A stretch of DNA of 64,000 nt, taken from assembly GCF_000154225.1 (NCBI RefSeq), contig NZ_DS264586.1:278527-342526 (forward strand), written 5' to 3'. Positions 634-16,626 of this stretch are shown here, piece after piece. A program made the position numbers and the translations under genes. Position 1 is the first letter of the stretch, and each line of letters starts with the position of its first letter. Under the pieces are notes generated by a model that saw only the letters and a list, made by a program, of their open reading frames with translations, searched no databases and was not told the origin of the DNA. This stretch comes from Schaalia dentiphila ATCC 17982 (GTDB lineage: Bacteria; Actinomycetota; Actinomycetes; Actinomycetales; Actinomycetaceae).

Positions 634-2307
634 CTACAGGCCGATAATCTCGGCAAACGCTCCCTTAATTGCGTCGAGACGCTCACGCGCCTGCTCACAG
701 GGCAGCGGCTCCCCCTCGGCGACCGGCAGGATCACCTCGAGGTAGCACTTGAGCTTTGGCTCAGTGCCCGAGGGGCGCGCGATGACGCGGTCCCCCGCCT
801 CGGTGAGCACAAGGACGCCGTCCGTGGGCGGCAGGCCGCGGTACCCCTGCGACAGGTCCGAGACCTCGACGACAGGAGAGCCTGCCAGGACGCTCGGTGG
901 CTGGGCACGCAGGCGCGCCATACCGCTGGCGATCTGCTCGATCTGCTCGACGCGGAAGGTCAGCGGCGAGCTCACGTGCAGGCCGTGCAGTCGCGCCAGG
1001 CGCTCCAGCTCGTCCCACACGCTACGCCCCTGCGCCTTGAGGGCGGCGACCAGGGAGGCGGCGACGACCGAGGTCGCGATGCCGTCCTTGTCGCGCACGT
1101 TGCCCGGATCGGGGCAAAAGCCGATGGCCTCCTCGTAGCCGAAGCCGAGGCCCGGTGCCCGGGCGATCCACTTGAAACCGGTGAGCGTCGTGTGGTGCTC
1201 CAGGCCGTGGGCACGGGCAATACGCGAGAGCAGGCGCGAAGACACGATCGAGTTCGCGAGCGAGCCCGTCATACCGCGGGCGGCCAGGAACTCACCCAGC
1301 AGCGAGCCGATCTGGTCTCCGCTCAGCGGACTCCAACCGGTCTCCGAGGTGGGGTCGGGCACCGCGAGCGCGCAGCGGTCCGCATCGGGGTCGACCGCGA
1401 TGATGAGGTCGGCCCCCTCCTCACGCGCCTGCTCGATCGCCATGTCTAGGGCGCCAGCCTCTTCGGGGTTGGGGAAGGGCACGGTCGGGAAGTCCGGATC
1501 GGGATCGGTCTGCGCCGCCACGAGGGAGACGTTGGAGAAACCGGCCTCAGCCAGGACGCGCGAGGTGATCGCGGCGCCCACACCGTGCATGGCGGTCAGG
1601 ACGATGCGCAGGTCCTCACGCGCCGATGCCTCGCCCGAGGCCAGGGCGGACGCGCAGGCCACGTACTCGTCGCGGGGGTCGACCGCCTCGATGAGGTCGT
1701 CGTTCATGGGCACCTGGTCGGCGGGCGGCGTGGCCTTGATGGCCTCGGCGATCTCGGCGTCGAAGGGTGGCACAATCTGAACGCCCTGCCCATCGCCGGT
1801 GACGACGCTGCCGCCCAGGTAGACCTTGTAGCCATTATCCGGGGCGGGGTTGTGGGAGGCCGTCACCATGACGCCCGCGTCGGCGCCGAAGTGGCGTACC
1901 GCGAAGGAGGTAAGCGGAGTCGGGTTCGCCTGGGGCAGCGCGAGGACCCGCACTCCGGCAGCCGAGGCGACGCGGCACGCGGCCGTCGCGAACTCGGAGG
2001 ACCCGTAGCGGGCGTCGCACCCGACAACGAGGGTTGGGGTCCCCGTCGCGTGGCGCTTAACGACCTCGCACAGGCCTGCGGTCGCGCGGATGACGACCGC
2101 GAGGTTCATGCGGGACTCGCCCGTACCCACGACGCCTCGCAGGCCGGCGGTACCGAACTGGAGGGGGCCGTTCATGGCCGCACCCACGCGGGCCGCAGCC
2201 TCCTCATCGCCGCGCTCCGCAGCCTCAATGTCGGAGCTCAGGGCCGAGGCCGTCGCGGGGTCCGGGTCGTGGCTCGCCCACTGGCGGGCGCGCTCGAGCA
2301 GCTCCAT
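634..2307 (-). CDS. Phospho-sugar mutase, PGM2/phosphopentomutase-like (alpha-D-phosphohexomutase superfamily)
   Basis: The protein is about 557 residues with all four superfamily loops: the phosphoserine loop TASHNPAPDNGYK, the metal loop DPDADR, the sugar-specificity loop GYEEAIGF, and the phosphate loop RPSGTEPK. The preceding TGFKWIA segment resembles PGM2-type enzymes, which act on pentose 1-phosphates. It sits last in a deoD-deoC-mutase run and no deoB-type phosphopentomutase is present, so conversion of (deoxy)ribose 1-phosphate to the 5-phosphate is the likely role. This specificity is inference from context; phosphoglucomutase or phosphomannomutase activity is the alternative. The start at 2307 is chosen because GGAGGA lies just upstream. 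An in-frame ATG at 2340 would overlap deoC. Confidence 0.85.
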   Translation of the reverse strand: MELLERARQWASHDPDPATASALSSDIEAAERGDEEAAARVGAAMNGPLQFGTAGLRGVVGTGESRMNLAVVIRATAGLCEVVKRHATGTPTLVVGCDARYGSSEFATAACRVASAAGVRVLALPQANPTPLTSFAVRHFGADAGVMVTASHNPAPDNGYKVYLGGSVVTGDGQGVQIVPPFDAEIAEAIKATPPADQVPMNDDLIEAVDPRDEYVACASALASGEASAREDLRIVLTAMHGVGAAITSRVLAEAGFSNVSLVAAQTDPDPDFPTVPFPNPEEAGALDMAIEQAREEGADLIIAVDPDADRCALAVPDPTSETGWSPLSGDQIGSLLGEFLAARGMTGSLANSIVSSRLLSRIARAHGLEHHTTLTGFKWIARAPGLGFGYEEAIGFCPDPGNVRDKDGIATSVVAASLVAALKAQGRSVWDELERLARLHGLHVSSPLTFRVEQIEQIASGMARLRAQPPSVLAGSPVVEVSDLSQGYRGLPPTDGVLVLTEAGDRVIARPSGTEPKLKCYLEVILPVAEGEPLPCEQARERLDAIKGAFAEIIGL

Positions 2308-2311
2308 CGTC

Positions 2312-2965
2312 TCAGTCCTCCAGTCCTGCCAGGATGGCATTGGTTGCGGACACTCCCAGGCGGGAGGCTCCGGCCTCGATCATTGCCAGGGCTGTCTCGG
2401 CGTCGCGGATGCCACCCGAGGCCTTGACTCCCAGGGCGTCTCCGACCGTGGCGCGCATGAGCGCGACCGCGTGGGTCGATGCGCCCCCGGTGGGGTGGAA
2501 ACCCGTCGACGTCTTGACGAAGTCAGCGCCAGCCGCCATCGACGCCCGGCAGGCGGCGACGATCTCATCGTCGGTGAGGGCCGCAGCCTCGATAATGACC
2601 TTGAGGACGCGCGGGGAGGGAACGACCCGGCGAACGGCAGCAATCTCCCCCTCCAAGTCGGCAAGCCGTCCATCCTTGACCAGCTCAATGTTGATGACCA
2701 TGTCGATCTCGTCGGCGCCATCCGCGACGGCGAGGGCCGCCTCGAATGCTTTCACCTCGGGCTTGACGGCTCCCGACGGGAAGCCGACCACGCAGGCGAC
2801 CTGCAATCCCTCGGGGACGTCAAGGGGCAGCATCGAGGGGGACACGCACACCGAGAAGGTGCCGGCCGCGGCGCCTTCCTCGACGATGCGGGCCACGTCC
2901 GCCTGGGTAGCCTCGGGCTTGAGGATCGTGTGGTCAATCATCGCGGCCACATCACGCTTGTTCAT
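2312..2965 (-). CDS. deoC: Deoxyribose-phosphate aldolase
   Basis: DeoC cleaves 2-deoxyribose 5-phosphate into glyceraldehyde 3-phosphate and acetaldehyde in the cytoplasm. This protein, about 217 residues, begins [20 protein letters not shown], the usual family N-terminus. The Schiff-base lysine lies in DFVKTSTGF and the second active-site lysine in [10 protein letters not shown]. Starts at 2989 (GTG) or 2986 (ATG) overlap the deoD stop codon. The start at 2965 fits the family N-terminus better. The gene lies four bases before the mutase start, so the two are almost certainly co-translated. It is the step that links the nucleoside locus to glycolysis. Confidence 0.95.
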
Positions 2966-2985
2966 GGAACTACTTTCTTGTCGCA

Positions 2986-3693
2986 TCACAGCTGGGCCAG
3001 GGGCAGGGCCAGCTCCATCATGGTGGTAAAGGACGTCTGACGCGCCTGGGCGTCGGTGGCCTCGCCCGTCACCAGGGAGTCCGAGACCGTGAAGATACCC
3101 ACGGCCTCAACGCCCGCGTGGGCGGCGGTGGCGTACAGGCCCGCGGACTCCATCTCGACCGCGAGCACGCCCATGCGCTGCCAGGCCTCGTTGAAGGTCG
3201 GATTCGCGTTGTAGAACGTGTCGGAGGAGAGGATGTTGCCCACGTGGATCGGCACGTCGGCCTCGCGGGCGCGGCGCACGACGTCGTCGATGAGGCGGAA
3301 GGAGCCGATCGGAGCGTAGGAGCCGGGGATCTGGTACTGGTCCAGGAACGCCGAGTTCGAGCACGCGGCCTGGGCGACCACCACGTCGTACAGGTTGATG
3401 TCTGGCTGCAGGGCGCCGCACGTTCCCACGCGCACGAGGCGCGTGCAGCCGAACTCGTGGATCAGCTCGTGGGCGTACAGCGAGATCGAGGGGATGCCCA
3501 TACCCGAACCCATGACGGAGACCGGGGTGCCGCGGTACGTGCCGGTGTAGCCCAGCATGTTACGCACGGCGTTGAACTGCTGCGCATCCTCCAGGTAGGT
3601 CTCGGCGATGAACTTCGCACGCAGCGGGTCTCCGGGCAGGAGGATCGTCGGCGCGATGGGTGCGGTGGGGTTGATGTGCGGTGTCGAGCGCAT
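2986..3693 (-). CDS. deoD: Purine nucleoside phosphorylase, DeoD type
   Basis: DeoD cleaves purine (deoxy)nucleosides with phosphate to give the free base and (deoxy)ribose 1-phosphate. The 235-residue protein matches the hexameric bacterial class. It has the N-terminal phosphate site [14 protein letters not shown], the VRVGTCGAL segment, the ribose-binding VEMESAGLY motif, and the catalytic aspartate in [13 protein letters not shown]-type Shine-Dalgarno sequence is present upstream of the ATG. It begins a second transcription block after the regulator gene, with its own promoter and a dyad at 3779-3798. Its product feeds the mutase and DeoC encoded just downstream. Confidence 0.95.
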
Positions 3694-3754
3694 GTGTCCT
3701 CCTGTGGTGTCGAGGAGCCCGAGGCTCCGTCGAGGCTTCTTTACCCTTGTCGCA

Positions 3755-3784: not shown

Positions 3785-3805
3785 CAAGTAGTTTGACAAA
3801 TGTTC
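3779..3805. promoter_or_regulatory. Predicted operator for the SorC-type regulator
   Basis: TGTCAA (3779-3784) and TTGACA (3793-3798) form a perfect inverted repeat with an 8-base spacer. The similarity extends to 11-base arms with two mismatches. The dyad overlaps the -35 box of the deoD promoter, a normal place for a repressor. The minus-strand 12-mer GAACATTTGTCA (3805-3794) recurs exactly upstream of the nucleoside transporter. Assignment to the adjacent regulator is inference. Confidence 0.55.
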
Positions 3806-4789
3806 TCATCCGCTTGGGATGCGATCACGCACCCCGCGCGGGGTTGCCCCACGCGGCCGTTCCAGCAGCGCGAGGGCCAGGTCCTGGTCGACCACCAGAT
3901 GAGTGGCCAACCCCATGTGCAGCGCCGTGTCCAGCGCCTCAGCTTTCACACGCCCTCCAGCAACGAGCACCCGCACAGGGCGAGAGCGCAGCTCGTCGAG
4001 CGTGATGCCGACCGTCCTGCGGTCGACCGACGCCAGGGCGACGCCGCCCTCGCGCGTGAAAAATCGCGAGCATGCGTCCCCGACCGCGTCGCGCAGGAGC
4101 GCCTCCACCTCGTCGTCCTCGAGCTGGCCGAGGTTGAGCGAGAGGGCCTCGCACCCCAGGGATCCGACGGTAAACACCGCCACGTCCACCCCGCGACCCT
4201 CCTCCAGGATCCGCTCGATCGCCCGGTCGCGACGCACAATCGAGAGCATCGCCATGTCCTGGAAAATGACGGGCAGCGGCAGGTAGCGCGGCTCCGCGCC
4301 GAAGGCCTCGCAGAAGGAACGCATGATCTCATAATCGTGCGTCGCCCTCTCGGAAAACGACGCCCCGCCCTTGAGCTGGACGACGCGCACGCCCACGCGA
4401 GGGGCGCGGGTCAAGTGGGCCGCGAGCGCACTCATCGTGCGCCCCCAAGAAATCCCCACGCTCATGCCGTCGCTCACGAGCTGAGTCACCACATCTGCAC
4501 CGACTCGACCGACCTGCTCAATAGCCTCACCCTCGGTCGCGCCCACGCCATGGGCAACGCGAGCGCAGGCCAGTCCAAAGCGCTGCTCCAGCCGCAGCGC
4601 AATCTCCGAAGCATCCTCGCGCGGATCGTGGATCTCGATGGTCACGAAGCCGCGCTCGCGGCCATGCGCGAGGAGTTTGGCGACCGTGGGGCGCGACAGG
4701 CCCATGCGTGTGGCGACCTCGGCCTGGCTGAGGCCCTGCTGGTAGTAGAGCTTGACCGCCTCAATCGACTGTTCGTCGCGCCGTTCCAC
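3806..4789 (-). CDS. SorC/DeoR-type sugar-binding transcriptional regulator
   Basis: The 327-residue protein has an N-terminal helix-turn-helix (about residues 10-50; GLSQAEVATRMGLSRPTVAKLL). The long C-terminal domain has the SorC sugar-phosphate effector fold (SWGRTMSALA and later GGRVKAEAL segments), also used by Bacillus subtilis DeoR, which senses deoxyribose 5-phosphate. It starts at a GTG preceded by GGAGGA. The gene lies between deoA and deoD in the nucleoside locus, so deoxyribose or ribose 5-phosphate is the probable signal. A dyad just beyond its stop codon overlaps the deoD promoter. Specific effector and targets are inferred, not shown by the sequence. Confidence 0.85.
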   Translation of the reverse strand: MERRDEQSIEAVKLYYQQGLSQAEVATRMGLSRPTVAKLLAHGRERGFVTIEIHDPREDASEIALRLEQRFGLACARVAHGVGATEGEAIEQVGRVGADVVTQLVSDGMSVGISWGRTMSALAAHLTRAPRVGVRVVQLKGGASFSERATHDYEIMRSFCEAFGAEPRYLPLPVIFQDMAMLSIVRRDRAIERILEEGRGVDVAVFTVGSLGCEALSLNLGQLEDDEVEALLRDAVGDACSRFFTREGGVALASVDRRTVGITLDELRSRPVRVLVAGGRVKAEALDTALHMGLATHLVVDQDLALALLERPRGATPRGVRDRIPSG

Positions 4790-4825: not shown

Positions 4826-6112
4826 TTAGGACACCGTCTCCAGGACGACGCTGCGCGGCTCGGGAGTGACCCCGTCGGCGATCTCGATAGCGCCGGAGAG
4901 GGACTCAAGGGCGCGCTCGATGCGCCACTCGTCGTCGGTGTGGAGCGTGAGCAGGGGTTGGCCCGCCGCGACGCGCTCGCCCGGCTTGGCGTGGATCTCA
5001 ATGCCGGCGCCCGCCTGCACGGGATCCTCCTTGACTGCGCGGCCAGCGCCCAGGCGCCAGGAGGCGACACCCACGCTGAGCGCGTCCATGCCAACCACTG
5101 TCCCATCGGTCTCGGCGAGCACCTGGTGCGTGTGGGCTGCACGCGGCAGCGGAGCATCCGGATCACCGCCCTGTTCGCGGATCATCGCGCGCCAGCGGTC
5201 CATCGCGGACCCGTCCGCCAGGGCGGCCTCCACGTCGGCGTTGCGGACCCCCGCGAGGTCAAGCATGTTGCGCGCGAGCTCACACGTCAGCTCAGTAACG
5301 TCGGCGGGCCCGCCGCCGGCGAGCACCTCGACGGATTCCTCCACCTCGAGGGCGTTGCCGATCTTGCGTCCCAGCGGCACCGACATGTCGGTGAGGAGGG
5401 CGCGCGTGGCGACCCCCGCGTCACGTCCGAGGTCGACCATCGTGCGGGCGAGCTCGCGCGCGGTGTCCAGGTCCTTCATGAAGGCACCCGATCCGACCTT
5501 GACGTCCAGGACGAGGGCTCCCGTACCCTCGGCGATCTTCTTGCTCATGATGGAGCTGGCGATCAACGCGATCGACTCAACGGTCGAGGTGATGTCGCGC
5601 AGGGCGTAGAGCTTCTTGTCCGCGGGTGCCAGGCCCGATCCCGCCGCGCAGATGACCGCGCCGCAGCCCTGCCCCAGCTGGGTCATGATCTCGTCGTTGC
5701 TCAGCTGCGCGCGCCACCCTGGGATCGCCTCGAGCTTGTCAAGGGTGCCGCCCGTGTGCCCCAGGCCTCGACCCGAGAGCTGGGGGACGGCCACGCCGAA
5801 GCACGCGACCAGCGGGGCCAGGGGCAGCGTGATCTTGTCTCCCACGCCGCCCGTGGAGTGCTTGTCGGCGGTCGGCTTGCCGATGCAGGAGAAGTCCATG
5901 CGCGCGCCCGAGCGGATCATCGCGTCCGTCCAGCGGGCAATCTCGCCCCGGTCCATGCCGCGCAGGAAAATCGCCATGGCCAGGGCGGCCATCTGCTCGT
6001 CCTTGATGACGCCCTTCGTGTAGGCGTCGATCGTCCAGTCGATCTGGTCGGGGGTCAGCACTCCCCCGTCGCGCTTCACGCGGATGATGTCAACGGCATC
6101 AAAGAGAGCCAT
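4826..6112 (-). CDS. deoA: Thymidine phosphorylase (pyrimidine nucleoside phosphorylase)
   Basis: This enzyme converts thymidine or deoxyuridine plus phosphate to the base and 2-deoxyribose 1-phosphate. The 428-residue protein carries the signature GRGLGHTGGTLDKLEAIPG around residue 115, the phosphate-binding KHSTGGVGDK segment, and a C-terminal PYNP domain including IHAKPGERVAAGQPL. The ATG at 6112 is preceded by GAAAGGA and lies within the last codons of cdd, so the two are translationally coupled. With cdd it drains pyrimidine nucleosides; deoxycytidine must be deaminated before it can be phosphorolysed. Confidence 0.95.
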   Translation of the reverse strand: MALFDAVDIIRVKRDGGVLTPDQIDWTIDAYTKGVIKDEQMAALAMAIFLRGMDRGEIARWTDAMIRSGARMDFSCIGKPTADKHSTGGVGDKITLPLAPLVACFGVAVPQLSGRGLGHTGGTLDKLEAIPGWRAQLSNDEIMTQLGQGCGAVICAAGSGLAPADKKLYALRDITSTVESIALIASSIMSKKIAEGTGALVLDVKVGSGAFMKDLDTARELARTMVDLGRDAGVATRALLTDMSVPLGRKIGNALEVEESVEVLAGGGPADVTELTCELARNMLDLAGVRNADVEAALADGSAMDRWRAMIREQGGDPDAPLPRAAHTHQVLAETDGTVVGMDALSVGVASWRLGAGRAVKEDPVQAGAGIEIHAKPGERVAAGQPLLTLHTDDEWRIERALESLSGAIEIADGVTPEPRSVVLETVS

Positions 6113-6566
6113 CGTGTCCTTCTTTCTCTTCCGACGAGGCCGGGGCCGCCTGGGCGACGCTCGACAGATCGTGGGGTCCGAACGCGCCGGGCAGCACCTC
6201 CGTCATAGGTGCGACGCCATCAGGCATGAGGACCAGGCAGGAGGGCCCGCCGTGCTCGTAGATAAGCTGGCGGCAGCGCCCGCACGGGGCCACCGGCTCC
6301 TCGTTGCCGTTGACGGCGACGACCGCGACGAGGGTGCCTCCGCCGGAGCGGATGAGGTCGGAGACCATGCCGCACTCGGCGCACAGAGTGACGCCGTATC
6401 CGGCGTTTTCGACGTTGCATCCGCTGACGAGCCAGCCGTCCGCCGTCAGCCCCACGGCTCCCACGGGGAAGTTCGAGTAGGGGCAGTACGCATGCTTCAT
6501 CGCATCGATGGCCTCGGCCAGCAGGGCGTCCCAGTCAATGTCTGTTGGATCCATGCGGGTTCTCAC
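6099..6566 (-). CDS. cdd: Cytidine deaminase
   Basis: Cdd hydrolyses (deoxy)cytidine to (deoxy)uridine. The protein (about 151-155 residues) shows AYCPYSNFPVGA, the CNVENAGYG segment, the catalytic LCAEC element with zinc ligand and glutamate, and the paired zinc ligands in PCGRCRQ. Two starts are possible. A GTG at 6566 overlaps the permease stop as GTGA. An ATG at 6554 is followed by DPTDIDWDALL. The overlap on both sides places cdd inside the transporter operon. The C-terminal tail of about 20 residues, rich in alanine, serine and glutamate, is longer than the catalytic core needs. Confidence 0.95.
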   Translation of the reverse strand: MRTRMDPTDIDWDALLAEAIDAMKHAYCPYSNFPVGAVGLTADGWLVSGCNVENAGYGVTLCAECGMVSDLIRSGGGTLVAVVAVNGNEEPVAPCGRCRQLIYEHGGPSCLVLMPDGVAPMTEVLPGAFGPHDLSSVAQAAPASSEEKEGHDGSL

Positions 6567-7843
6567 TTCACGTAGGGGATGTTCTCGGCGGCGGGCGCAC
6601 GCGACTTACCGACGAATCCCGCGACGGCCACGATCGTGACCACGTAGGGGATCATCGAGACGAGGTCGGCGGGGATCGCGGGCTCGATGTTGGGCAGCAT
6701 GCGGGCCAGGGCCTGCGCGAAGCCGAACATGACGGCCGCACCCATAGCTCCCAGCGGGTTCCACTTGCCCAGGATCATGGCGGCCAGGGCGATGTAGCCG
6801 TTGCCCGCAGAAATATTGTCCGTGAAGGCCAGGCCGGAACCGATCGTGAAGAACGCACCACCCAGGCCGGCGAAGGACGACCCCAGGATCGTGTTGAGTG
6901 TGCGCGTACGCCCCACGTTGATGCCGACCGTGTCGGCGGCGCGCGGGTGCTCACCGCAGGCCCTCAGCCGCAGGCCCCACCGGGAGCGGAACAGGAAGAA
7001 GGCCAAGGCGATGACGGCCGCGTACATCAAGTACACGAGGATCGACTGGTTGAACAGGACCGGGCCGACGATCGGGATCTCTGACAGGACGGGAATCTTG
7101 ATGTCGGACAGCGAGAACTGGTTGGTGTTCAGGCTTCCGGGAGCGTCCTTCATGATCGTGCCGTAGAAGAACGTCGTCAGGCCCAGGGCCAGGACATTCA
7201 GGACAACGCCGACGATGATCTGATCCACCCCGTACTTCACGGAGAAGAGGGCCAGGAGGGATCCCAGGAAGGCACCCGCGAGGGGAGCCACGACGAGGCC
7301 CGCGTAGGGGGTCTGGAAGTACGAGGCCGCCATGACGCCCGCGAAGGCGCCGACCAAGAGATCGCCCTCAATCGCGATGTTGACGACGCCCACACGCTCC
7401 GAGATAACACCCGAGAGCGAGCCGAAGATCAGCGGCGTCGAGATCGCCACGGTGGACACCAGGGTAGAGGTCAGCGTGACGACGCCCGAGGACCCGGAGC
7501 CCGCGTAGAACAGGAATCCCAGGATCGTGGACAGCCCGACGAGCACCATGCCGCCGACGCGTGCCCACTCGGGCTGGGTGATGCGCCGCAGCGTCGCCGC
7601 GACCGTCCACAGGGTGATGGCGATCGACACCGCGGCGAGCACCCACACGATGGGCGCGCCCGCGGTGACGATGTCGGGAATTGAGTATGACTGCGACTTG
7701 TCGTTCAGGCGCAGGGTCATGTCGCCACGAGCAGTGGCCGCGAAGACCACGAGCAGCACGCAGGCTGCCACGTAGATGCCGGGAAGCTTCCAGGAGGGCT
7801 TGGCCTCGACCTGAGTGACCATGCCGGACTCACTTGTGCTCAT
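6563..7843 (-). CDS. Nucleoside ABC transporter permease (second permease)
   Basis: The protein of about 426 residues is an integral membrane permease of the BPD_transp_2 family, as in BMP-type nucleoside importers. About nine to ten hydrophobic segments can be counted. The conserved permease region reads GERVGVVNIAIEGD-like, followed by GVDQIIVGVVLN and CGEHPRAADTVGINV. The ATG at 7843 has GAAAGGGGAA upstream and overlaps the end of the first permease by 14 bases. It pairs with the other permease to form a heterodimeric channel. Nucleoside rather than simple-sugar transport is inferred from the partner lipoprotein type and from the cdd-deoA genes directly downstream. Confidence 0.88.
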   Translation of the reverse strand: MSTSESGMVTQVEAKPSWKLPGIYVAACVLLVVFAATARGDMTLRLNDKSQSYSIPDIVTAGAPIVWVLAAVSIAITLWTVAATLRRITQPEWARVGGMVLVGLSTILGFLFYAGSGSSGVVTLTSTLVSTVAISTPLIFGSLSGVISERVGVVNIAIEGDLLVGAFAGVMAASYFQTPYAGLVVAPLAGAFLGSLLALFSVKYGVDQIIVGVVLNVLALGLTTFFYGTIMKDAPGSLNTNQFSLSDIKIPVLSEIPIVGPVLFNQSILVYLMYAAVIALAFFLFRSRWGLRLRACGEHPRAADTVGINVGRTRTLNTILGSSFAGLGGAFFTIGSGLAFTDNISAGNGYIALAAMILGKWNPLGAMGAAVMFGFAQALARMLPNIEPAIPADLVSMIPYVVTIVAVAGFVGKSRAPAAENIPYVK

Positions 7844-8969
7844 CGGCGTTCCCCTTTCGCGTGTTAGCCGCGAGCGCGCGGACATCGGGCAGACGGAACA
7901 GCCACCGCACGAGCGCGGGCGCTGCGATCAGCAGGACGATCACCGACTGCAGGATGAGGATCATGTCGATCGGCACGCCCTTAGCCTGCATCGTGTAACC
8001 GCCCGCCTTGAAGGCACCGAAGAGGAGTCCCGCGCCGAAGGTTCCCCACGTCTTGTTGCGGCCCAGGAGGGCCACCGTGATCGCATCGAAGCCGATCGAA
8101 CCGGCCACGTCACGCGAGACGTACCCGATGGTCCCCAATGCCTCGTTCGCGCCAGCCAGGCCAAGAAACGCGCCCGAGAGGACCATCGTGATCGCCGTGA
8201 TGCGCTCGACCGAAATGCCGGCGGTACGGGCCGCGGCAGCGTTCGCGCCGACCGCTCGGATCTGGAATCCCAGCGTCGAGCGTTCGATCAGCCACCAGAA
8301 GAAGGCGAGGGCAACCAGGGCGACGATGAAGCCGACGTGCAGCTTGAAGGGCGCGGGCAGCAGGCGCGTCAGAGCCGCGCTCTCCGCGACCTTCGGCGTC
8401 ACCGGCTGATTCGAGCCGGGCACCTGCCATGCCTTCTGCGCCAGGACATATCCCAGGCCCAGCGTCGCAATCGAGTTGAGCATGATCGTCACGATCACCT
8501 CGTTCGCGCCCGTCTTTGCCTTCAAGACACCCGCGATGCCGGCGTAGAGGCCACCCGCAATCACCGCGACGAGGAGGGCCACCAGCGTGTGCAGGACCGG
8601 TGGCAGGCTCACCGCGAAGCCCACCCACACAGCCGCGAGCGCTCCGACGATGATCTGGCCCTTGCCGCCAATGTTGAACAGACCCGCTCGGAAGCCGAGC
8701 GCCAAGCCCAGGCCCGAGATGATCAGCGGGATCGAATAGAACAGGGAGTCGGTCAGTGGCTTGATCATGCGAACAACGTTCGCCGCGTTCGGATCCACGA
8801 TGGAGCCGCGGAACATCGCATAGTAGGCATCCACCACGGACGCCCCCGACAGCGCGATGAGAATCGCTCCAATCGCGAAGGCGATGAGGACGGCCAGCAC
8901 CGACACGAACCACTGGGAGCCAAAGACCCGGGTCGCGATGCCCAGCCCGTTACTCGTACGTGCGCTCAT
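7830..8969 (-). CDS. Nucleoside ABC transporter permease (first permease)
   Basis: A 379-residue BPD_transp_2 permease with about eight to nine membrane segments. The family segments GLFNIGGKGQIIVGA and GANEVIVTIMLNSIA are visible, as is GANAAAARTAGISV near the C-terminal third. Its ATG overlaps the ATPase stop codon as ATGA, which shows translational coupling. Together with the second permease it forms the membrane channel for nucleosides bound by the BMP lipoprotein. The short N-terminal cytoplasmic stretch (MSARTSNGLGIATRVFG) is followed immediately by a transmembrane helix. Confidence 0.88.
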   Translation of the reverse strand: MSARTSNGLGIATRVFGSQWFVSVLAVLIAFAIGAILIALSGASVVDAYYAMFRGSIVDPNAANVVRMIKPLTDSLFYSIPLIISGLGLALGFRAGLFNIGGKGQIIVGALAAVWVGFAVSLPPVLHTLVALLVAVIAGGLYAGIAGVLKAKTGANEVIVTIMLNSIATLGLGYVLAQKAWQVPGSNQPVTPKVAESAALTRLLPAPFKLHVGFIVALVALAFFWWLIERSTLGFQIRAVGANAAAARTAGISVERITAITMVLSGAFLGLAGANEALGTIGYVSRDVAGSIGFDAITVALLGRNKTWGTFGAGLLFGAFKAGGYTMQAKGVPIDMILILQSVIVLLIAAPALVRWLFRLPDVRALAANTRKGNADEHK

Positions 8970-10531
8970 TGTTCCTCCTGCCTTGGTGCCCCGGATTCCT
9001 GAGCCGATCCCGAGGAGTCGGCCACGGCCTCGTCCAGGGGGACGCCGGCCATCATGAGGCCGAGGACGTCGCGGCCCGTGTCCGCAGGGACGATGCCGAC
9101 GATGCGGCCGCGGTACATGACGGCAATGCGGTCGGCCAGTGAGACAACCTCGTCAAGCTCCGAGGAGATGAGCAGGACCGCGCAGCCCTGGTCCCGCACA
9201 TCCACGATCCTGCGATGAATGAACTCGATCGAGCCGACATCGACGCCGCGCGTCGGCTGATTGGCGACCAGCAGTGTCAGGTCACGCGACATCTCACGGG
9301 CCACGACGACCTTCTGCTGATTGCCGCCCGACAGAGAGGAGACTGGGTCCTCGATCGACGTCAGACGGATGTCGTATTCCGTCTCCTTCTCGCGGGCGTT
9401 GCGCGCGATTGCGCCGCGCTTGAGGGAACCCGCAGCCGAGAAGGAGGAGGAGCGGAACTGGTCGAGCACCAGGTTGTCCGCGATCGAAAACGAGGCGATG
9501 ATGCCGTCCGTCGAACGGTCCTCGGGGATGAAACCGACTCCCGCGTCCAGGGACTCGCGAGGCCTCGCGCGGGTAATGTCCGCGTCCTCGAGCCGGATCA
9601 CACCGCTGTCGGGGGTGCGCAGGCCCAGGATCACCTCGGCGAGCTCAGTCTGGCCGTTCCCCTGTACGCCGGCGACCGCCAGAATCTCTCCCTGACGAAC
9701 GTCGAAAGACACGTGGTCGAGGAGGGGAACGCCCCCCGAGCCGAGCAGGGACACATCCTCGAAGGCCAGGCCGCCGCCAGCGGGACGCGCGGGTTCCTTC
9801 TCCACGCGCATGAGCACCTCGCGCCCAACCATCTGCGTGGCCAGCGAGGCCTCGGAATCGCTCGGGGACGCGTGCCCCACAACCCGACCGCGGCGAATGA
9901 CCGTGATCTCGTCGGCGACCACGCGCACCTCGCGCAGCTTGTGGGTGATGAACACGATCGAGGTCCCAGCATCGGCGAGCTGACGCATGATCGTCATCAG
10001 CTCGTCCGTTTCCTGCGGGGTGAGCACCGCGGTTGGTTCATCGAGAATGAGGACCTTTGCCCGGCGCGACAGGGCCTTGACGATCTCCACGCGCTGTTGG
10101 GCGCCCACCGGCAGATCCTCAATGAGGGCGTCGGGGTCCAGGTCGAAGCCGAAACGCGCCGAGACCTCACGCACCGTCTGGCGGGCGCGCTCGCGACTGA
10201 TAATCCCGGCAGGGCCGGTCGGCTCGAAGCCCAGTGCGATCGACTCGGCGACCGTGAAGACGGGGATGAGCATGAAGTGCTGGTGCACCATGCCGATGCC
10301 CGCCGCGACCGCGTCGCCGGGGCCCTTGAACGTCACGGGCTCGCCGTCGATGAGGATCTGCCCCTCGTCGGGGGCATGCATCCCGTACAGGACGTTCATG
10401 AGCGTGGACTTGCCCGCGCCATTCTCTCCCAGCAGGGCGTGAATATGCCCCTCCTCGATCGTTAAGTCAATCGAGTCGTTGGCGATGAGGGGACCAAACC
10501 TCTTCGTGATCCCCCGCAACTCTAATTTCAT
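8966..10531 (-). CDS. Nucleoside ABC transporter ATPase, two fused ABC domains
   Basis: The 521-residue protein holds two nucleotide-binding domains, as usual for BMP-type importers. Domain 1 has Walker A GENGAGKST, the Q loop HQHFML, the signature LPVGAQQRVEI and Walker B ILDEPTAVL. Domain 2 has a degenerate P-loop (GVQGNGQTEL, without the GKS/T) and an intact signature LSGGNQQKVVVAREM. One competent and one degenerate site is normal in this family. It follows the lipoprotein gene after a hairpin (10578-10615), which may set a higher level of the binding protein than of the ATPase. Confidence 0.93.
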   Translation of the reverse strand: MKLELRGITKRFGPLIANDSIDLTIEEGHIHALLGENGAGKSTLMNVLYGMHAPDEGQILIDGEPVTFKGPGDAVAAGIGMVHQHFMLIPVFTVAESIALGFEPTGPAGIISRERARQTVREVSARFGFDLDPDALIEDLPVGAQQRVEIVKALSRRAKVLILDEPTAVLTPQETDELMTIMRQLADAGTSIVFITHKLREVRVVADEITVIRRGRVVGHASPSDSEASLATQMVGREVLMRVEKEPARPAGGGLAFEDVSLLGSGGVPLLDHVSFDVRQGEILAVAGVQGNGQTELAEVILGLRTPDSGVIRLEDADITRARPRESLDAGVGFIPEDRSTDGIIASFSIADNLVLDQFRSSSFSAAGSLKRGAIARNAREKETEYDIRLTSIEDPVSSLSGGNQQKVVVAREMSRDLTLLVANQPTRGVDVGSIEFIHRRIVDVRDQGCAVLLISSELDEVVSLADRIAVMYRGRIVGIVPADTGRDVLGLMMAGVPLDEAVADSSGSAQESGAPRQEEQ

Positions 10532-10623: not shown

Positions 10624-11718
10624 TCACTTCGGGGCGTTCTGCGATTCGATGACGAGCTTGCCGGACTTGATGTCGTCCGTGAGCTTGGTCAGGTCCGCCT
10701 TGAGTTCCGCGGACACCTTGTCGTCGAAATCGTGGAACGGGGCGATCGAGACACCGCCGTTGGCCAGCGTGCCCACGTACGGGGTCGAGCTGAACTTGCC
10801 GTTCACCGAGTCCTGGATCGCCTGCTCGACAGAGGCACCGATCTCCTTCATGACCGAGGTCAGCACGATCGAGGAGTAGTCGGGGTTGGCCTCGTACCAG
10901 TCGGAGTCAACGCCGATGATCCAGGTGTTTCCATCCGCCTTGGCGGCAGCCGCAGCGCCCAGGCCGACCGGGCCCGCGACGGGCATGATGATGTCCGCGC
11001 CCTGGGAGATGAACTGCTGCGCCTGCTCCTTGCCGAGCGTCTGATCGTCGAAGGACTGCGTGAAGGAGCCGTTCTGCGTGGCCTTGTCCCAGCCGAGCAG
11101 CTGCACGTTCGTGCCCTTGGCCTTGTTGTATGCCGCGACGCCGTCAGCGAAGCCATCCATGAACACCGTCACCGAGGGGATCTGGATACCGCCGAAGGTG
11201 GCGACCTTGCCGGTCTTGGTCATGCCCGCGGCCACGTAGCCTGCCAGGTAGGCGGCCTCAGCGGTGTTGAACAGCAGCGGACGCGCGTTGTCCAGCGTCA
11301 CCGTGTTGTTGTTACCGTCGTTGAAGCTGGAGTCGATGAGGGCGTAGTGCACGTCCTTGTTCTCGTCGGCGGAGGTGTGGACGGCCTTCTCCAGGTTGAA
11401 TCCGACGCCGATGATCAGGTTGCAGCCGTCGGAGACCATGGACTCAACGTTCGGGTTGAAGTCCGCGTCCGAGTTGGACTCGGCCGTGTTGATCTGGATT
11501 CCGAGGCTCGTCTGGGAGGCCTTGAGGCCCTCGTAAGCGGACTCGTTGAAGGACTTGTCGTCCCAGCCGCCGGCGTCAGAGACCGCGCAGGCCTTGAACG
11601 AGGTGGCATCCTTCGCCCCGCCGGACTGGCTGGTGGCGGTTCCTCCGCCGCCGCCACAGCCGGCCAAGGCGAGCGTTGCAACTCCCGCAGCGGCGAGGAG
11701 CTTCGTGAGGTGCTTCAT
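10624..11718 (-). CDS. BMP-family nucleoside-binding lipoprotein
   Basis: The 364-residue protein has a lipoprotein signal peptide, MKHLTKLLAAAGVATLALAG, followed by the lipid-modified cysteine. A glycine-rich linker follows, then a BMP (PnrA/BmpA-like) domain. Family segments include DAGGWDDKSFNESAYEGL near the start of the mature domain, GCNLIIGVGFNLE, and GADIIMPVAGPVGLGAAAAA. The start at 11718 has GGAGGA upstream; an in-frame ATG at 11814 would add residues before the signal peptide and is rejected. It captures nucleosides at the cell surface for the two permeases. It is the first gene of the transporter operon, next to the 5'-nucleotidase that would produce its ligands. Confidence 0.92.
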   Translation of the reverse strand: MKHLTKLLAAAGVATLALAGCGGGGGTATSQSGGAKDATSFKACAVSDAGGWDDKSFNESAYEGLKASQTSLGIQINTAESNSDADFNPNVESMVSDGCNLIIGVGFNLEKAVHTSADENKDVHYALIDSSFNDGNNNTVTLDNARPLLFNTAEAAYLAGYVAAGMTKTGKVATFGGIQIPSVTVFMDGFADGVAAYNKAKGTNVQLLGWDKATQNGSFTQSFDDQTLGKEQAQQFISQGADIIMPVAGPVGLGAAAAAKADGNTWIIGVDSDWYEANPDYSSIVLTSVMKEIGASVEQAIQDSVNGKFSSTPYVGTLANGGVSIAPFHDFDDKVSAELKADLTKLTDDIKSGKLVIESQNAPK

Positions 11719-11801: not shown

Positions 11802-11866
11802 GAACATTTGTCATGATCGACTTTTACGTCTGATCCGAGTCTCCCGCGCCGCCACCGGCGTGTCAA
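11802..11866 (-). promoter_or_regulatory. Control region of the nucleoside transporter operon
   Basis: The plus-strand 12-mer GAACATTTGTCA at 11802-11813 is identical to half of the dyad upstream of deoD. A minus-strand TTGACA (11866-11861) followed after 17 bases by GAGACT is a weak promoter candidate just past the 5'-nucleotidase stop codon. The second half of the dyad is poorly conserved here. Confidence 0.4.
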
Positions 11867-11872
11867 GAACAA

Positions 11873-14152
11873 CTAGTTCTCACTTTGGTAACGATTCGCA
11901 CGTCGACGAGCGAGAACCCCCGCGCCGCCGATCGCGGCGATGGCCGCCGCGCCGAGCAGCGCCTCGGCGTAGGCACCGGTGCGGGCCAGCCCGCCCCGCT
12001 TAGCACTCGGGCTGGGCGAGGCGGAGGGCGTCGGAGCACTCGGCGTCGCGTCACCACCGGCGTCGGGGGTCGGGGACGGCTGGGCGGCACTGTCTCCGGC
12101 GCAGGTCACGGGGATCGTGAGGCCATCCCCGGCCTCGACGACCGTCGCGAAGTCGGTGGCGACCGTGACAGGGACGTTCACGACCTCGCCGGCCGCCTTG
12201 CCCTCGCAGGCACCCACGACCGTCACGTCCACGCTCGCCTGTCCCGCGCCATCCGTCGTGATGACCGAGGCGGCGTCGGAGGCGTGCGCGTCCACGAGGG
12301 AGTTGTCGACCTCGGCCACGGCCTGCGCTCCCCCGGCGCTCACGCGCACTTTCGAGGTGATGGAGGGCCCCTCGGAGAAGGACAGGCCGCGCAGCGGAAT
12401 CGTCACCGTCGAGCCGTCGGCCACCGCTTCGGTGGGCAGGGTCAGGCCGATGGAGGACTTGGCCTCGCGCGGGCTCAGCCCTCCCTCAGCCTGGACCGAA
12501 CGGGCCCGGCCTCCCGAGTGCGCGCCCAGATAGGCGTTGAAGGAATCGCGGTCCAGGTTGCCGTTCGTCGTGGCAGCTCCCCCGCGGGTCAGGGCCTCGA
12601 AGGAGTCGCCACCCTCCAGCAGGAAGGACACGGAGCCGACCGTGTACGTCGCGTCGGCCTTCAGCGGCTCACCGTTGATCGTCACCGACGTGATGCGCTG
12701 GCCATAGGGTTTGGCTGGGTCGTAGGTGTATCGCACGTTCGAGGAGAGGCCCAGCTTGAGCATCGGCCTGGAGTTCTGTGAGTTCAGGTCCGTCTTCCAC
12801 TGCTGCTCGAGCGCGTCCTTGACGTCCGATCCCTTCAGGGTGACGTATCCCAGCTCATCGGAGAAAGGCATGACCTCATACGTCTGCGCGTAGGTGATCG
12901 TGCCGTCCTCGTTCGGCACCAGGTCGGCACGCAGGCCGCCCGCCATGATCATGCCGATGTCAACGCTCTTTCCATCCGGGGTCAGGATCGTTTCGCGCAG
13001 GGAATCCGCCACCAGGTCGCCCAGGGAGGATTCGATGCCTCGGTTCGATCCGGGGTCCGTGGCCCCCTCGGGCGTCGTAAAGACGCCGCGCCTGAAGGCC
13101 TCTGTGTAGCCCGTAGCGACGACGCGCTTCCCGGCTTCCTTCGAGTCGGACTCAGCTTGGTCGACGATCGCCTGGGTGTCGGGGTCCGAGCCGCACTGGG
13201 CAACCTCTGCGGCCGGAATGAGGATCGAGTCAGCACTCGTGACCTGACGCGTCACGGGATCGATCGTCAGACGGATGAGTCCCAGATTGTCCGTGTATGA
13301 GCCCGACGCGATACCCGCCAGCAGGGGGTTGGCCGAGTCGAAACGCTCGTGGGAGTTGACGTGGTCGAACTCGTAGGGCACGTGCGTATCCCCGCCCATC
13401 AGACCGTCGACGTCCTTGCCGACCTTCGTGTAGTTGTTCTTCACGTCGTCGTCGAGCATCGCAATGACGACGTCGGCCTTCCCACTGCCCTTGAGCTCGG
13501 CTGCCAGGTCATTGATGCGCTTGATGGGGTCCGTGAAGGTCAGGCCGGCCGTCGTTCCAGGACTGAGTTTGTAGGGAACGTCCTGAGCGATCGCGCCGAT
13601 AAAAGCTACCTTCATGCCCGACGGTGACGTCCACAGCTTGTAGTCCCCGAGGTAGGGCGTGCCGTCCCCGTAGGTACCCATGCCCTCGATGTTGGCTCCC
13701 AGGTACGGGAAGGTGGCCTGCACGAACTCGCTCGGGTTGGAGCCGTCTACGCGCTGCTTGAAGACAGCCTGCCCCATGTCCAGCTCGTGGTTGCCGATCG
13801 TCGAGGCCAGCGGATCCATCGTGTTGAGGGCCGCGATGGTCGGGTTGTCCTTCAGCGCGCCGGAGATGTAGGGGGACGCGCCGATATTGTCGCCCAGCAG
13901 AGTGAACGAGGAATTGGGGTTCGTCGCGCGTGCCTTCTTCAGGTAGCAGTTCATCGCGGGCAGCCCCGCCTCGCGCACTGTGCCCTTCTTGGCGACCTGC
14001 TGGATGTGTCCGTGCACGTCCGTGAGGTTGTAGAGGTCCAGGGTGATCGGCGCGTCGGCACCTGGCGGAGCCGCGAGCGCGGCAGCCGGCAGGGAGGCCA
14101 GGGTCAGGGCGGCCGCCGAAGCGAGGGCGAGGCGTGTCCATGGTCTGCGCAT
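11873..14152 (-). CDS. Secreted, cell-wall-anchored 5'-nucleotidase / metallophosphatase (UshA/AdsA-like)
   Basis: The 759-residue protein has a signal peptide (about residues 1-27, ending LPAAALA) and a metallophosphatase domain with NLTDVHGHI, LGDNIG and IGNHELDMG. The 5'-nucleotidase C-terminal domain includes GGLRADL and FLLEGGDSFEAL. A proline/serine-rich linker follows, then an LARTG motif at about residues 722-726, a hydrophobic stretch and a basic tail. That is a sortase signal of the LAXTG type preferred by class E sortases. The role is dephosphorylation of extracellular (d)NMPs to nucleosides. The start at 14152 has GAAAGGAA upstream. It is 68 bases downstream of the nuclease gene and upstream of the transporter. 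Confidence 0.9.
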   Translation of the reverse strand: MRRPWTRLALASAAALTLASLPAAALAAPPGADAPITLDLYNLTDVHGHIQQVAKKGTVREAGLPAMNCYLKKARATNPNSSFTLLGDNIGASPYISGALKDNPTIAALNTMDPLASTIGNHELDMGQAVFKQRVDGSNPSEFVQATFPYLGANIEGMGTYGDGTPYLGDYKLWTSPSGMKVAFIGAIAQDVPYKLSPGTTAGLTFTDPIKRINDLAAELKGSGKADVVIAMLDDDVKNNYTKVGKDVDGLMGGDTHVPYEFDHVNSHERFDSANPLLAGIASGSYTDNLGLIRLTIDPVTRQVTSADSILIPAAEVAQCGSDPDTQAIVDQAESDSKEAGKRVVATGYTEAFRRGVFTTPEGATDPGSNRGIESSLGDLVADSLRETILTPDGKSVDIGMIMAGGLRADLVPNEDGTITYAQTYEVMPFSDELGYVTLKGSDVKDALEQQWKTDLNSQNSRPMLKLGLSSNVRYTYDPAKPYGQRITSVTINGEPLKADATYTVGSVSFLLEGGDSFEALTRGGAATTNGNLDRDSFNAYLGAHSGGRARSVQAEGGLSPREAKSSIGLTLPTEAVADGSTVTIPLRGLSFSEGPSITSKVRVSAGGAQAVAEVDNSLVDAHASDAASVITTDGAGQASVDVTVVGACEGKAAGEVVNVPVTVATDFATVVEAGDGLTIPVTCAGDSAAQPSPTPDAGGDATPSAPTPSASPSPSAKRGGLARTGAYAEALLGAAAIAAIGGAGVLARRRANRYQSEN

Positions 14153-14220
14153 GGGTGTGTTCCTTTCATCGGTGCGGTGTCGGTGCCGCATCCTGGGTGG
14201 TGGGTTTGACGTGCCCGGTG

Positions 14221-16626
14221 TCAGCCGCGGCGACGGGTACGGCGCGAGAGAACCATAAGTCCACCTCCCGCCGCGGCGAGGATGATCCCGAGGCCGATCG
14301 CCCGGTCGGTGTCCGAGCCGGTGCGCGGAAGGCCGCCCACCGTCGCGGCGCGCGTGTGCGTCTTTCGGGACGAGGCCGGGGCCGCCCTCGAGGGAGCCGG
14401 CGCGGGGGACGCGGACGGGTCTGCGGAGGGTTCAGCGCTCGGTGAGGGGGACGCACTGGGCGATGTTGTCGGCGCGGCGGAAGGCTCGGCGCTCGGCATC
14501 GGGGCCGGGGTGTGCCCACCGAGGAGGGTGAGTCCGATGATCTCGGGGTTGTGGTCCGAGGAGCGGTAGGGGTTGTCGGCCTCGACGGCCAGGTGGGCGT
14601 TCATACCGGCCCTCGAGTATTCGAAGGCGATGGACTCCTGAGCGTTGATGGCCCAGCTGGTGACCCCCGCGAGGAGCGGCTTCGCGGCCGCGTTGGCGAA
14701 GACATGATCGAGGGATCCGGAGCGTCCCGCGTAGACGTAGGAGGCCTCGCCCGCGCCGGAGACGCGCTCCCATCCCGCGGCCTCGAGGGCCTTGATCGGG
14801 TCCTCCTGCGAGTAGGAGTTGAAGTCACCCACGAGCAGGGTCGGCTTGTCCGCAAATCGGGCGGCGAAGGAGGCCAAGGCGCCCGCCTGGGCGACACGGA
14901 TCGCATTCGCGTTTCCTTGCCCATCCCCGCTATCAACGTTTCCGGCAGGAGCGCCCTCGGGCACGGATCCCTTCGACTTGAAGTGGTTGGCTACGACGAC
15001 GAAGGAGGCGGGCGCGGATCTCTCCCCCGCGACCCGCGCGAACTCTTGGGCGAGGGGCTGTCGCGCCAGTCCCGTGAATGCCGGGTCGTCGTGGATCAGC
15101 GAGGGGCCGACGGGAGCCACGGTCGCGGGCTTGTAGATGAAGGCGACGCGGATGACGTCCTCGGCCTCGGGAACTGCCTGGGGCGAAGGCACGTACGCCC
15201 ACGTTCCCGCGCCCGCGTCCTTGTTGAGTGCCTCGACGAGGCGGGCGAGGGACGCGTCGCGGTCCGTCCCCACGCCCACGGCGACAGGGTTTTCAATCTC
15301 TTCGAGGGCAACCACATCGGCACCCAACGCATTGATCGCGGCAACAATCTTCGCCTCCTGGTTCGCAAAGGCCTCGCGCGAGAACGCGCCGCGCACCTTG
15401 CACTTCTTGGCCGTCACGAAGGCACCCGTACGGTCCGGGTAACCCGAGCAACCGGACTCGTCAACTCCCAGGTCTGAGAAGTAGTTGAGAACGTTGAACG
15501 TAGCCACGCGGGTGTCCCCGCCGACCGTGGGGACACCCGGCCTGTTCCCCGTGATGGTCACGGGGCTGCGATCGGGGTGTGCGGCGACCATCGCGGTCGG
15601 CTGGAAGACGGTGGTCCCGTGTCGGGTTTCGAGAACGACGGGAGCGTCGAAGGCGACGTGGTAGCCGACGCGGGCCGGTGCCCCGTTCGCCAGGTAAGCG
15701 TAGGCCACCTCGGTGGCGGCCCCCTTCAGCAGGTTCGTATTGGTGCCGTCGTCGAGCGCGATCGCGCGGGCCGCGTTGGCGGCCTCGTAGTCACGGGCGG
15801 CCTGCCCGGGAGCCACCACGTCCGTGGCCGAGCGCAGCGGGCTCTCACCCGGGGTGAGGGTCAGGGTGCCGTATTGGTTCGTCTGGTAGTTGTCGGTAAT
15901 GGTCCACGTGCCCTGGGGTGCGAGGAGCATGGATTCGTAAGCCTCGGCCTCGCTCGGCGAGGGCACCTGAGTGAGCGGGGTGGGGGTCGGTGCTGCACAG
16001 CCTTCCACCGTATTCACGACGGTCGCGGCCAGCTGGGTGAGGCTCTGGGGGTTGCCCTTCGCACTCGTCGCGGGGAACTCACCGACCATGCCGGTGACGC
16101 GCACGCAGGTGCCCGGGGCCGGGATCTCGCCTTTCTTGCCCGCGTAGACGAAGAGGCCGTCGGAGCGTGTGCGCCCCGGCTCCCACGCGCCGCCCGATCC
16201 GGGGGTCTGGATCGTGTAGCCGTCCAAGGTCGCACCCAGCCCGGATTCAGAGGCCGGGTACGCGGCCGTCACGACGCCGAGAGTCGTGACTGTGGCCCCC
16301 GCCATCGCGGAATCGTCTCCCTCGCCCACTGCCTGGATATCGGGGATCGGCGTATCGACGAGGCCGGGGCCGGTCTCGCCCGATTGCGCGGATCCCTCGG
16401 GGAGGGAAGTCTCCGCCGGCTGCGTCGGTTGAACAGGCTGCGCAGCGGCCGACTGGGGTTGCGCCGCATCAGCCTGCGACACTCCCGGCCATCCCGACTG
16501 CGTTACCTGACCGGACTGCGCGGAATCCGACCGGTGCGCATCGACCGCCCACGACGCGGGTACAAGCCCCGCCGCGGACAGCGCAAGCGCGCCGAACACA
16601 GCTAGTGTTCGTGTCCCGTACCTCAT
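14221..16626 (-). CDS. Cell-wall-anchored extracellular nuclease, ExeM/NucH family
   Basis: The 801-residue protein begins with a signal peptide (MRYGTRTLAVFGALALSAAG). An OB-fold-like region follows (about 100-200; VTTLGVVTAAYP, TCVRVTGMVGEF), as in ExeM/NucH nucleases. The endonuclease/exonuclease/phosphatase domain (about 365-700) contains TRVATFNVLNYF, ADVVALEEIENP, VVANHFKSKG, LLVGDFNSYSQEDP and RSSDHNPEI. A serine/proline/alanine linker leads to LPRTG (about 766-770), a hydrophobic helix and a basic tail, a canonical sortase signal. It would degrade extracellular DNA or RNA at the cell surface. The start at 16626 has AGAGGAT upstream. It is the first step of the scavenging locus. Confidence 0.92.
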   Translation of the reverse strand: MRYGTRTLAVFGALALSAAGLVPASWAVDAHRSDSAQSGQVTQSGWPGVSQADAAQPQSAAAQPVQPTQPAETSLPEGSAQSGETGPGLVDTPIPDIQAVGEGDDSAMAGATVTTLGVVTAAYPASESGLGATLDGYTIQTPGSGGAWEPGRTRSDGLFVYAGKKGEIPAPGTCVRVTGMVGEFPATSAKGNPQSLTQLAATVVNTVEGCAAPTPTPLTQVPSPSEAEAYESMLLAPQGTWTITDNYQTNQYGTLTLTPGESPLRSATDVVAPGQAARDYEAANAARAIALDDGTNTNLLKGAATEVAYAYLANGAPARVGYHVAFDAPVVLETRHGTTVFQPTAMVAAHPDRSPVTITGNRPGVPTVGGDTRVATFNVLNYFSDLGVDESGCSGYPDRTGAFVTAKKCKVRGAFSREAFANQEAKIVAAINALGADVVALEEIENPVAVGVGTDRDASLARLVEALNKDAGAGTWAYVPSPQAVPEAEDVIRVAFIYKPATVAPVGPSLIHDDPAFTGLARQPLAQEFARVAGERSAPASFVVVANHFKSKGSVPEGAPAGNVDSGDGQGNANAIRVAQAGALASFAARFADKPTLLVGDFNSYSQEDPIKALEAAGWERVSGAGEASYVYAGRSGSLDHVFANAAAKPLLAGVTSWAINAQESIAFEYSRAGMNAHLAVEADNPYRSSDHNPEIIGLTLLGGHTPAPMPSAEPSAAPTTSPSASPSPSAEPSADPSASPAPAPSRAAPASSRKTHTRAATVGGLPRTGSDTDRAIGLGIILAAAGGGLMVLSRRTRRRG

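What the first reader, a model, noticed from the sequence alone, without database searches (positions are those of the whole stretch)
634..16626. Complete surface-to-glycolysis nucleic acid scavenging locus, including anchored nuclease plus 5'-nucleotidase
Seen: eleven same-strand genes run from a wall-anchored ExeM/NucH nuclease and a wall-anchored 5'-nucleotidase to a nucleoside importer, cdd, deoA, deoD, deoC and a pentomutase-like protein. Known: nuclease plus 5'-nucleotidase is the pair with which Staphylococcus aureus (Nuc and AdsA) turns neutrophil trap DNA into deoxyadenosine that harms macrophages. Inference: this organism may eat biofilm or trap DNA, and its surface pair could release immune-active (deoxy)adenosine. 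All steps lie together, which is unusual.
Basis: partly seen in the sequence, partly recalled or inferred. Interest (0 to 1): 0.75.

Follow-up and report, generated by a model that had tools for sequence, protein, structure and literature searches.

The report
Oral bacterium's nucleic-acid scavenging locus
A mouth bacterium keeps in one place the genes that look able to cut DNA at its surface, strip the phosphates, import the nucleosides and burn their sugar, and its surface nucleotidase carries an unusual change in the metal-binding site, shared by its close relatives, that makes its actual activity an open and testable question.

Summary
Twelve (not eleven) same-strand genes at 634-16626 of a Schaalia odontolytica chromosome encode an ExeM/NucH nuclease and a 5'-nucleotidase-fold protein, both with wall-sorting signals, a BMP-type ABC importer, cdd, a pyrimidine phosphorylase, a SorC/DeoR regulator, deoD, deoC and a PGM-family mutase; the genome has no DeoB match. 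The order recurs in 15 of 27 closely related named loci; nuclease and nucleotidase also cluster or fuse elsewhere in the family. New here: (1) a DeoR-type operator whose exact 12-mer occurs only twice in the 2.39 Mb genome, before bmp and before deoD; it scores high in 10 of 10 sorC-bearing loci (which trained the matrix) and at chance in 4 of 4 sorC-less loci. Before nuc the site is weak, so joint control of surface and uptake genes is not shown. (2) Both site-2 metal histidines of the nucleotidase are aspartates (D247, D268) in 49 of 49 distinct orthologues, and it is the genome's only PF02872 protein. Release of immune-active (deoxy)adenosine is therefore unproven. Most likely a DNA/nucleoside-eating locus with a variant surface phosphatase: a new variant of a known kind.

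The parts
14221..16626 (-). ExeM/NucH-family secreted endonuclease, LPRTG sorting signal (801 aa)
   Evidence: NF033681 545.9 bits (cut-off 300), Exo_endo_phos; motifs EEIEN, NHFKSKG, GDFNSY, SLDH, SDHNP present (their catalytic role is recalled)
11873..14191 (-). 5'-nucleotidase-fold surface protein, LARTG sorting signal (772 aa), site-2 metal residues D247 and D268
   Evidence: 5_nucleotid_C 123.4 bits, Metallophos 17.4 below cut-off 21.5
11838..11866 (-). promoter-like TTGACA-17-GAGACT before bmp (weak -10)
   Evidence: read; not found by the consensus scan
11802..11813 (+). predicted DeoR operator GAACATTTGTCA before bmp
10624..11718 (-). BMP/PnrA-type lipoprotein, substrate-binding (start corrected from 11814)
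   Evidence: Bmp 171.9 bits; relatives in PDB
8966..10531 (-). ABC importer ATPase
   Evidence: ABC_tran, two stretches
7830..8969 (-). ABC importer permease
   Evidence: BPD_transp_2
6563..7885 (-). ABC importer permease
   Evidence: BPD_transp_2
6099..6566 (-). cdd, cytidine deaminase
   Evidence: NF004064 168.2 bits, cut-off 74
4826..6112 (-). deoA/pdp, pyrimidine/thymidine phosphorylase
   Evidence: NF004490 621 bits, cut-off 269; TIGR02644 540.4, cut-off 409.05
3806..4789 (-). SorC/DeoR-family regulator
   Evidence: Sugar-bind 199.7 bits; NF053881 311.8 against cut-off 420
3794..3805 (-). predicted DeoR operator GAACATTTGTCA before deoD, upstream of a TTGACA (-35-like)
2986..3693 (-). deoD, purine nucleoside phosphorylase
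   Evidence: NF004489 327.5 (cut-off 230), TIGR00107 263 (cut-off 232.25)
2312..2989 (-). deoC, deoxyribose-phosphate aldolase
   Evidence: TIGR00126 218.5 bits, cut-off 117.3
634..2340 (-). PGM/PMM-superfamily mutase, probable phosphopentomutase
   Evidence: four PGM_PMM domains; no DeoB in the genome; no NCBIfam equivalog cut-off met
16841..17965 (-). guaB3, upstream neighbour, not counted in the locus
   Evidence: TIGR01304 569 bits

Best explanation
This is a nucleic-acid scavenging locus. Inferred sequence of events: the sortase-anchored ExeM/NucH nuclease cuts extracellular DNA (perhaps RNA) at the cell surface; the anchored 5'-nucleotidase-fold protein removes the phosphates; the BMP-type ABC importer takes up nucleosides; cdd, the phosphorylases, the PGM-family mutase and deoC turn (deoxy)ribose into glyceraldehyde-3-phosphate and acetaldehyde. 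The SorC/DeoR regulator represses the importer operon and the deoD operon by binding GAACATTTGTCA sites and is probably released by deoxyribose-5-phosphate, as in Bacillus subtilis. The surface pair is probably made from its own promoter before nuc. The surface phosphatase belongs to a lineage in which metal site 2 would have only oxygen ligands (D101, N134, D247, D268), so it probably works with another second metal than the canonical enzymes. Shown: gene content, order, synteny, operator occurrence, residue replacement, fold model. Inferred: every activity, the regulation and the metal preference.
Against: No activity or expression data. The site before nuc is weak: p<=0.05 in 2 of 10 sorC-bearing loci and in 1 of 4 sorC-less loci, so surface and uptake genes may not be co-regulated. 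The BMP protein could bind another ligand. The D/D replacement could abolish catalysis. The phosphopentomutase role is by exclusion, and the genome has three other PGM_PMM_I matches. 10 of 27 close named loci have the nucleotidase with none of the other genes in the stretch, so it is not tied to nucleoside use. 22 of the 87 genomes have the pair on different contigs and 23 on one contig but over 25 kb apart.
Confidence: 0.72

Rival explanations
1. Phosphate (or purine) scavenging first: the surface pair mainly frees phosphate or purine bases from DNA, and carbon use by the deo genes is secondary.
For: In other genera a similar pair (with a canonical GHTH nucleotidase) flanks an RNase II-like gene, purF and purM (11 of the 19 loci from other genera; these were fetched because the pair was close, so this is not a frequency).
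Against: In Schaalia the pair sits with an importer, deoC and the mutase, which would yield carbon and energy; the twelve genes include no phosphate transporter.
Confidence: 0.3
2. The nucleotidase-fold protein is a pseudoenzyme: it binds nucleotides or serves as an adhesin and does not hydrolyse them.
For: Two of the metal ligands are replaced. The N of the C-terminal NGGGxR motif reads M in the window protein (alignment), though the majority of A1 keeps N there (consensus).
Against: The two replacements are to Asp, also a metal ligand, and are invariant together with the other ligands and H135; a decayed site would be expected to drift.
Confidence: 0.2
3. Immune modulation: the pair makes (deoxy)adenosine from trap DNA, as S. 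aureus Nuc and AdsA do.
For: Same two activities by annotation; fold like CD73.
Against: Altered active site, another nuclease family, and a linked importer and phosphorylases that would consume the nucleosides.
Confidence: 0.1

Closest known systems
Putative DNA-degradation loci of Candidatus Izemoplasmatales (PMC8289736, passages seen)
   Same: extracellular nucleases, phosphohydrolases and ABC transporters in one locus, proposed to digest and import DNA parts
   Different: unrelated bacteria, also phosphate transporters; the cytosolic deo pathway and a DeoR regulator in the locus were not mentioned in the passages I saw
B. subtilis deoR / dra-nupC-pdp operon (PMC11229326, passages seen)
   Same: SorC-family DeoR, deoC (dra), pyrimidine phosphorylase (pdp), nucleoside uptake (nupC), similar operator
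   Different: NupC instead of an ABC importer (transporter type recalled), no surface nuclease or nucleotidase in the operon
S. aureus Nuc + AdsA (from the finding and recall)
   Same: secreted nuclease plus wall-anchored 5'-nucleotidase-fold protein
   Different: other nuclease family (recalled), nucleotidase here with altered metal site, here linked to an importer and catabolic genes
Ecto-5'-nucleotidase CD73 / UshA / E. coli c4898 (3ivd)
   Same: two-domain fold over residues 47-583
   Different: site-2 His pair replaced by Asp pair, 19-26% identity

Membership tests
ExeM/NucH extracellular nucleases | score over NF033681 cut-off (300 bits) | tested here: met
   545.9 bits
ExeM/NucH extracellular nucleases | DNase activity outside the cell | not testable with these tools
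   sequence only; expected motifs present
5'-nucleotidase family (UshA/CD73/AdsA type) | metallophosphatase domain plus 5_nucleotid_C domain, two-domain fold | tested here: met
5'-nucleotidase family (UshA/CD73/AdsA type) | full dinuclear ligand set with two site-2 histidines (set recalled from UshA) | tested here: not met
   both read Asp (D247, D268); the rest kept
Surface 5'-nucleotidases NF040549 / NF047875 | score over cut-off 1050 bits | tested here: not met
   56.1 and 121.7 bits
S. aureus Nuc/AdsA-type immune system | release of deoxyadenosine that harms macrophages | not testable with these tools
   none
BMP/PnrA nucleoside ABC importers | Bmp-domain lipoprotein with own ATPase and two BPD_transp_2 permeases | tested here: met
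   lipobox read by me
BMP/PnrA nucleoside ABC importers | nucleoside binding | not testable with these tools
   inferred from neighbours
DeoR of the SorC family | Sugar-bind effector domain with N-terminal HTH | tested here: met
   PF04198 199.7 bits; HTH-type matches in residues 10-52
DeoR of the SorC family | score over NF053881 (Bacillus DeoR) cut-off 420 | tested here: not met
   311.8 bits
DeoR of the SorC family | DeoR-like operator at the regulated promoters | tested here: met
   sequence only, binding not tested
Phosphopentomutase DeoB | TIGR01696 match | tested here: not met
   0 matches in the genome; the locus mutase is of the PGM superfamily

The most novel reading that the evidence does not exclude
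The surface protein founds a distinct lineage of 5'-nucleotidase-fold phosphohydrolases, so far seen here in Actinomycetaceae plus one record labelled Microbacteriaceae, in which metal site 2 is built from oxygen ligands only (D101, N134, D247, D268). It would use a different second metal, perhaps Mg, Ca or Mn, and possibly another preferred substrate, and it would be the only enzyme of its family that S. odontolytica has.
Probability: 0.45. Interest if true: 0.62.

Novelty: new variant of a known kind. Interest (0 to 1): 0.5.

Why it matters
It gives a compact, genetically testable model for how oral actinomycetes may eat DNA of biofilms or neutrophil traps, with a predicted regulator, operators and effector. 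The paired His-to-Asp exchange in an otherwise invariant active site raises a clean chemical question, and warns that database names such as 'bifunctional metallophosphatase/5'-nucleotidase' for these proteins are predictions. S. odontolytica XH001 also hosts the epibiont TM7x, which lacks de novo nucleotide synthesis (PMC10768705, passage seen), so a host-surface nucleoside source could matter to it (speculation; XH001 itself was not examined here).

Tried and rejected
Riboswitch control: no Rfam match in window 1-20000 at E<=1 and none in the whole window at gathering scores. Consensus promoter/terminator scan: nothing above chance. The first synteny table missed the nuclease in S. georgiae because of BLAST composition statistics; it was repeated without them, and one search was not used for counts. 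The large alignment puts E or Q in the column of D247 in 10 outgroup sequences whose His is the residue before; alignment A1, which holds two of those ten, shows His there. L083 and L101 had dropped out of that alignment (frame taken too short); L083 is D/D in A1. Solved structures by sequence for the nuclease: only low-complexity matches. Exact motif MGGDTHxPY: own genome only among 396 phylum genomes; that sample held no other genome of its family, so it bounds the spread only outside the family. An operator-like site also reaches p=0.02 before the nucleotidase in one locus (L082) and the nuc region taken for L080 begins inside the gene. Literature: no paper held both 'Schaalia odontolytica' and 'nucleotidase'; the searches for such a metal-ligand exchange, for nuclease-nucleoside operons in Actinomyces, for Actinomyces nucleotidase with sortase and for oral DNase producers gave nothing on this locus by their listings. 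Of listed papers I saw titles and starts of abstracts, except PMC8289736, PMC11229326, PMC10768705, PMC12369343 and PMC7784981, where passages were seen.
Full report
Where it is. The window lies in a 2.39 Mb genome (G000). Its nucleotidase is 99% identical to that of Schaalia odontolytica FDAARGOS_732, so the organism is taken as S. odontolytica.

The observation. Twelve minus-strand genes run from 16626 down to 634: ExeM/NucH nuclease, 5'-nucleotidase-fold protein, BMP lipoprotein, ABC ATPase, two permeases, cdd, pyrimidine phosphorylase, SorC/DeoR regulator, deoD, deoC and a PGM-superfamily mutase. The nuclease passes NF033681 (545.9 against 300 bits). Both surface proteins have N-terminal export-like sequences (read by me) and C-terminal sorting signals; of the relatives listed, 23 of 24 nucleotidases and 10 of 15 nucleases show LAxTG, which fits class E sortases (recalled; PMC5148588 holds both terms by the listing). 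The genome has one class E and two class C sortases. No DeoB was found in the genome and four PGM_PMM_I matches were, so the mutase beside deoC is the likely phosphopentomutase, by exclusion.

Conservation. One search returned 54 loci. L074-L100 (27) hold close orthologues of the nucleotidase; L101-L127 are distant ones (26-38% identity). In one search the order nuc-5NT-bmp-ATPase-permease-permease-cdd-deoA is kept in 15 of the 27; sorC is present in 11 of these and absent in 4 (L085, L086, L087, L099). L081 (A. bovis) has only the surface pair; L092 has the nucleotidase about 3.5 kb from importer/deo genes on the other strand; the remaining 10 show the nucleotidase without any of these genes in the stretch. 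Different arrangements of the same parts argue for a functional tie.

Wider family. Of 151 family genomes, 117 match the nucleotidase and 90 the nuclease model. From the printed rows (one search's list was cut; nucleotidase rows for 109 genomes were used) 87 genomes have both; 22 have them on different contigs, 65 on one contig, 42 of these within 25 kb and 41 of those on one strand. In 10 genomes (G007, G008, G015, G022, G041, G046, G065, G084, G101, G113) the two matches lie in one uninterrupted open frame of 1500-1761 aa; one (L136, from G101) was confirmed as nuclease plus 5'-nucleotidase by domain scan. In G070 the frame holds a stop. In 11 of the 19 loci from other genera, nucleotidase and nuclease flank an RNase II-like gene (scanned in one, L131), purF and purM (purF and purM named by my reading of their sequences, not by a family search). 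These loci were fetched because the pair was close.

Regulation. Aligning the deoD upstream regions showed a conserved block GAACATTTGTCAA. A matrix trained on 11 deoD sites only, run over the 64 kb window, gave two strong hits: 27.7 bits at 3793 (a training site) and 21.6 bits at 11802, before bmp; the next was 10.8. The exact 12-mer GAACATTTGTCA occurs twice in the genome, at these two places; allowing one mismatch adds two further places, against two for the reversed control. With a matrix from both sites, deoD and bmp regions score high (p 0.01-0.03) in 10 of 10 sorC-bearing loci, which trained it and of which several are close kin, and at chance (p 0.52-0.99) in 4 of 4 sorC-less loci (three near-duplicate sorC-bearing loci, L034, L036 and L076, were left out and have the sites). 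The site resembles part of the B. subtilis DeoR operator ATTGAACAAAATTTCAATTACCAATTTACATATGTTCAA, whose repressor answers to deoxyribose-5-phosphate (PMC11229326, passages). Before nuc the best site reaches p<=0.05 in 2 of 10 sorC-bearing loci and in 1 of 4 sorC-less loci: inconclusive. So importer and catabolic genes are predicted to be co-regulated; the surface genes are not shown to be.

The nucleotidase. The expected motif H-(E/D)-G ... G-H-T-H reads D-D/N-D ... G-D-T-H. In the alignment, 49 of 77 distinct sequences (the window's own included) have D247/D268 together with D58, H60, D101, N134, H135 and H270; these are all its sequences of at least 41% identity (identities). The other 28, among them two from the same family (L072, L073, about 35%), keep His at 268; 18 have His at 247 and 10 show E or Q there, an alignment slip since His is the residue before. 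In the smaller alignment A1 the split is 30 D/D and 12 H/H. All 228 proteins listed by two database searches carry D/D at the two columns (three are gapped at other columns); each list shows only the best 120 and so favours close relatives. Nucleotidases of L128-L146, the purF-purM and fused loci among them, carry GHTH (one second domain, in L140, reads GDSH). The AlphaFold model (pLDDT 85.8) matches E. coli c4898, CD73, UshA and others over residues 47-583; no coordinates were at hand to measure the site. The assignment of D247 and D268 to UshA metal site 2 (H217, H252) is from alignment plus recalled UshA numbering. The genome holds one PF02872 match, this protein; one search counts a second, weaker match to the whole protein that was not printed. 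I infer an active hydrolase with a harder second metal; a pseudoenzyme remains possible.

Verdict. The locus is real, conserved and best read as nucleic-acid scavenging. The immune reading rests on a nucleotidase whose active site departs from the enzymes invoked. What deserves attention is the D/D lineage and the DeoR regulon, both directly testable.

Noticed in passing
L076, L077, L087: Records titled Xylanimonas cellulosilytica 352_XCEL, Sanguibacter keddieii 250_SKED and Trueperella pyogenes 331_TPYO carry Schaalia/Actinomyces-like loci (90%, 88% and 65% nucleotidase identity, same gene order): probably misnamed genome records.
   Followed up: no
L095:12573-13919: A transposase-like ORF (my reading, no family search) lies between nucleotidase and bmp; guaB3 matches in two separated pieces and the nuclease frame is short (492 aa) in the same locus.
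   Followed up: no
L086:5500-9700: Two nuclease matches in tandem before the nucleotidase.
   Followed up: no
L083:12607-13218: An extra 203-aa ORF between nucleotidase and bmp; L082 and L084 have a similar gap, not read.
   Followed up: partly
L136:6754-12000: Single 1748-aa ORF with lamin-tail domain, ExeM/NucH nuclease and canonical 5'-nucleotidase beside purF-purM.
   Followed up: yes
window 46580-62992: By reading only: an endo-N-acetylgalactosaminidase-like secreted protein, a sugar-binding lipoprotein, a beta-galactosidase, a LacI-type regulator, a sialic-acid-type transporter and a sialidase; looks like a mucin-glycan scavenging region.
   Followed up: no
L140:628-4902: 1424-aa ORF with two 5'-nucleotidase C-terminal domains, motifs GHTH and GDSH.
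   Followed up: no
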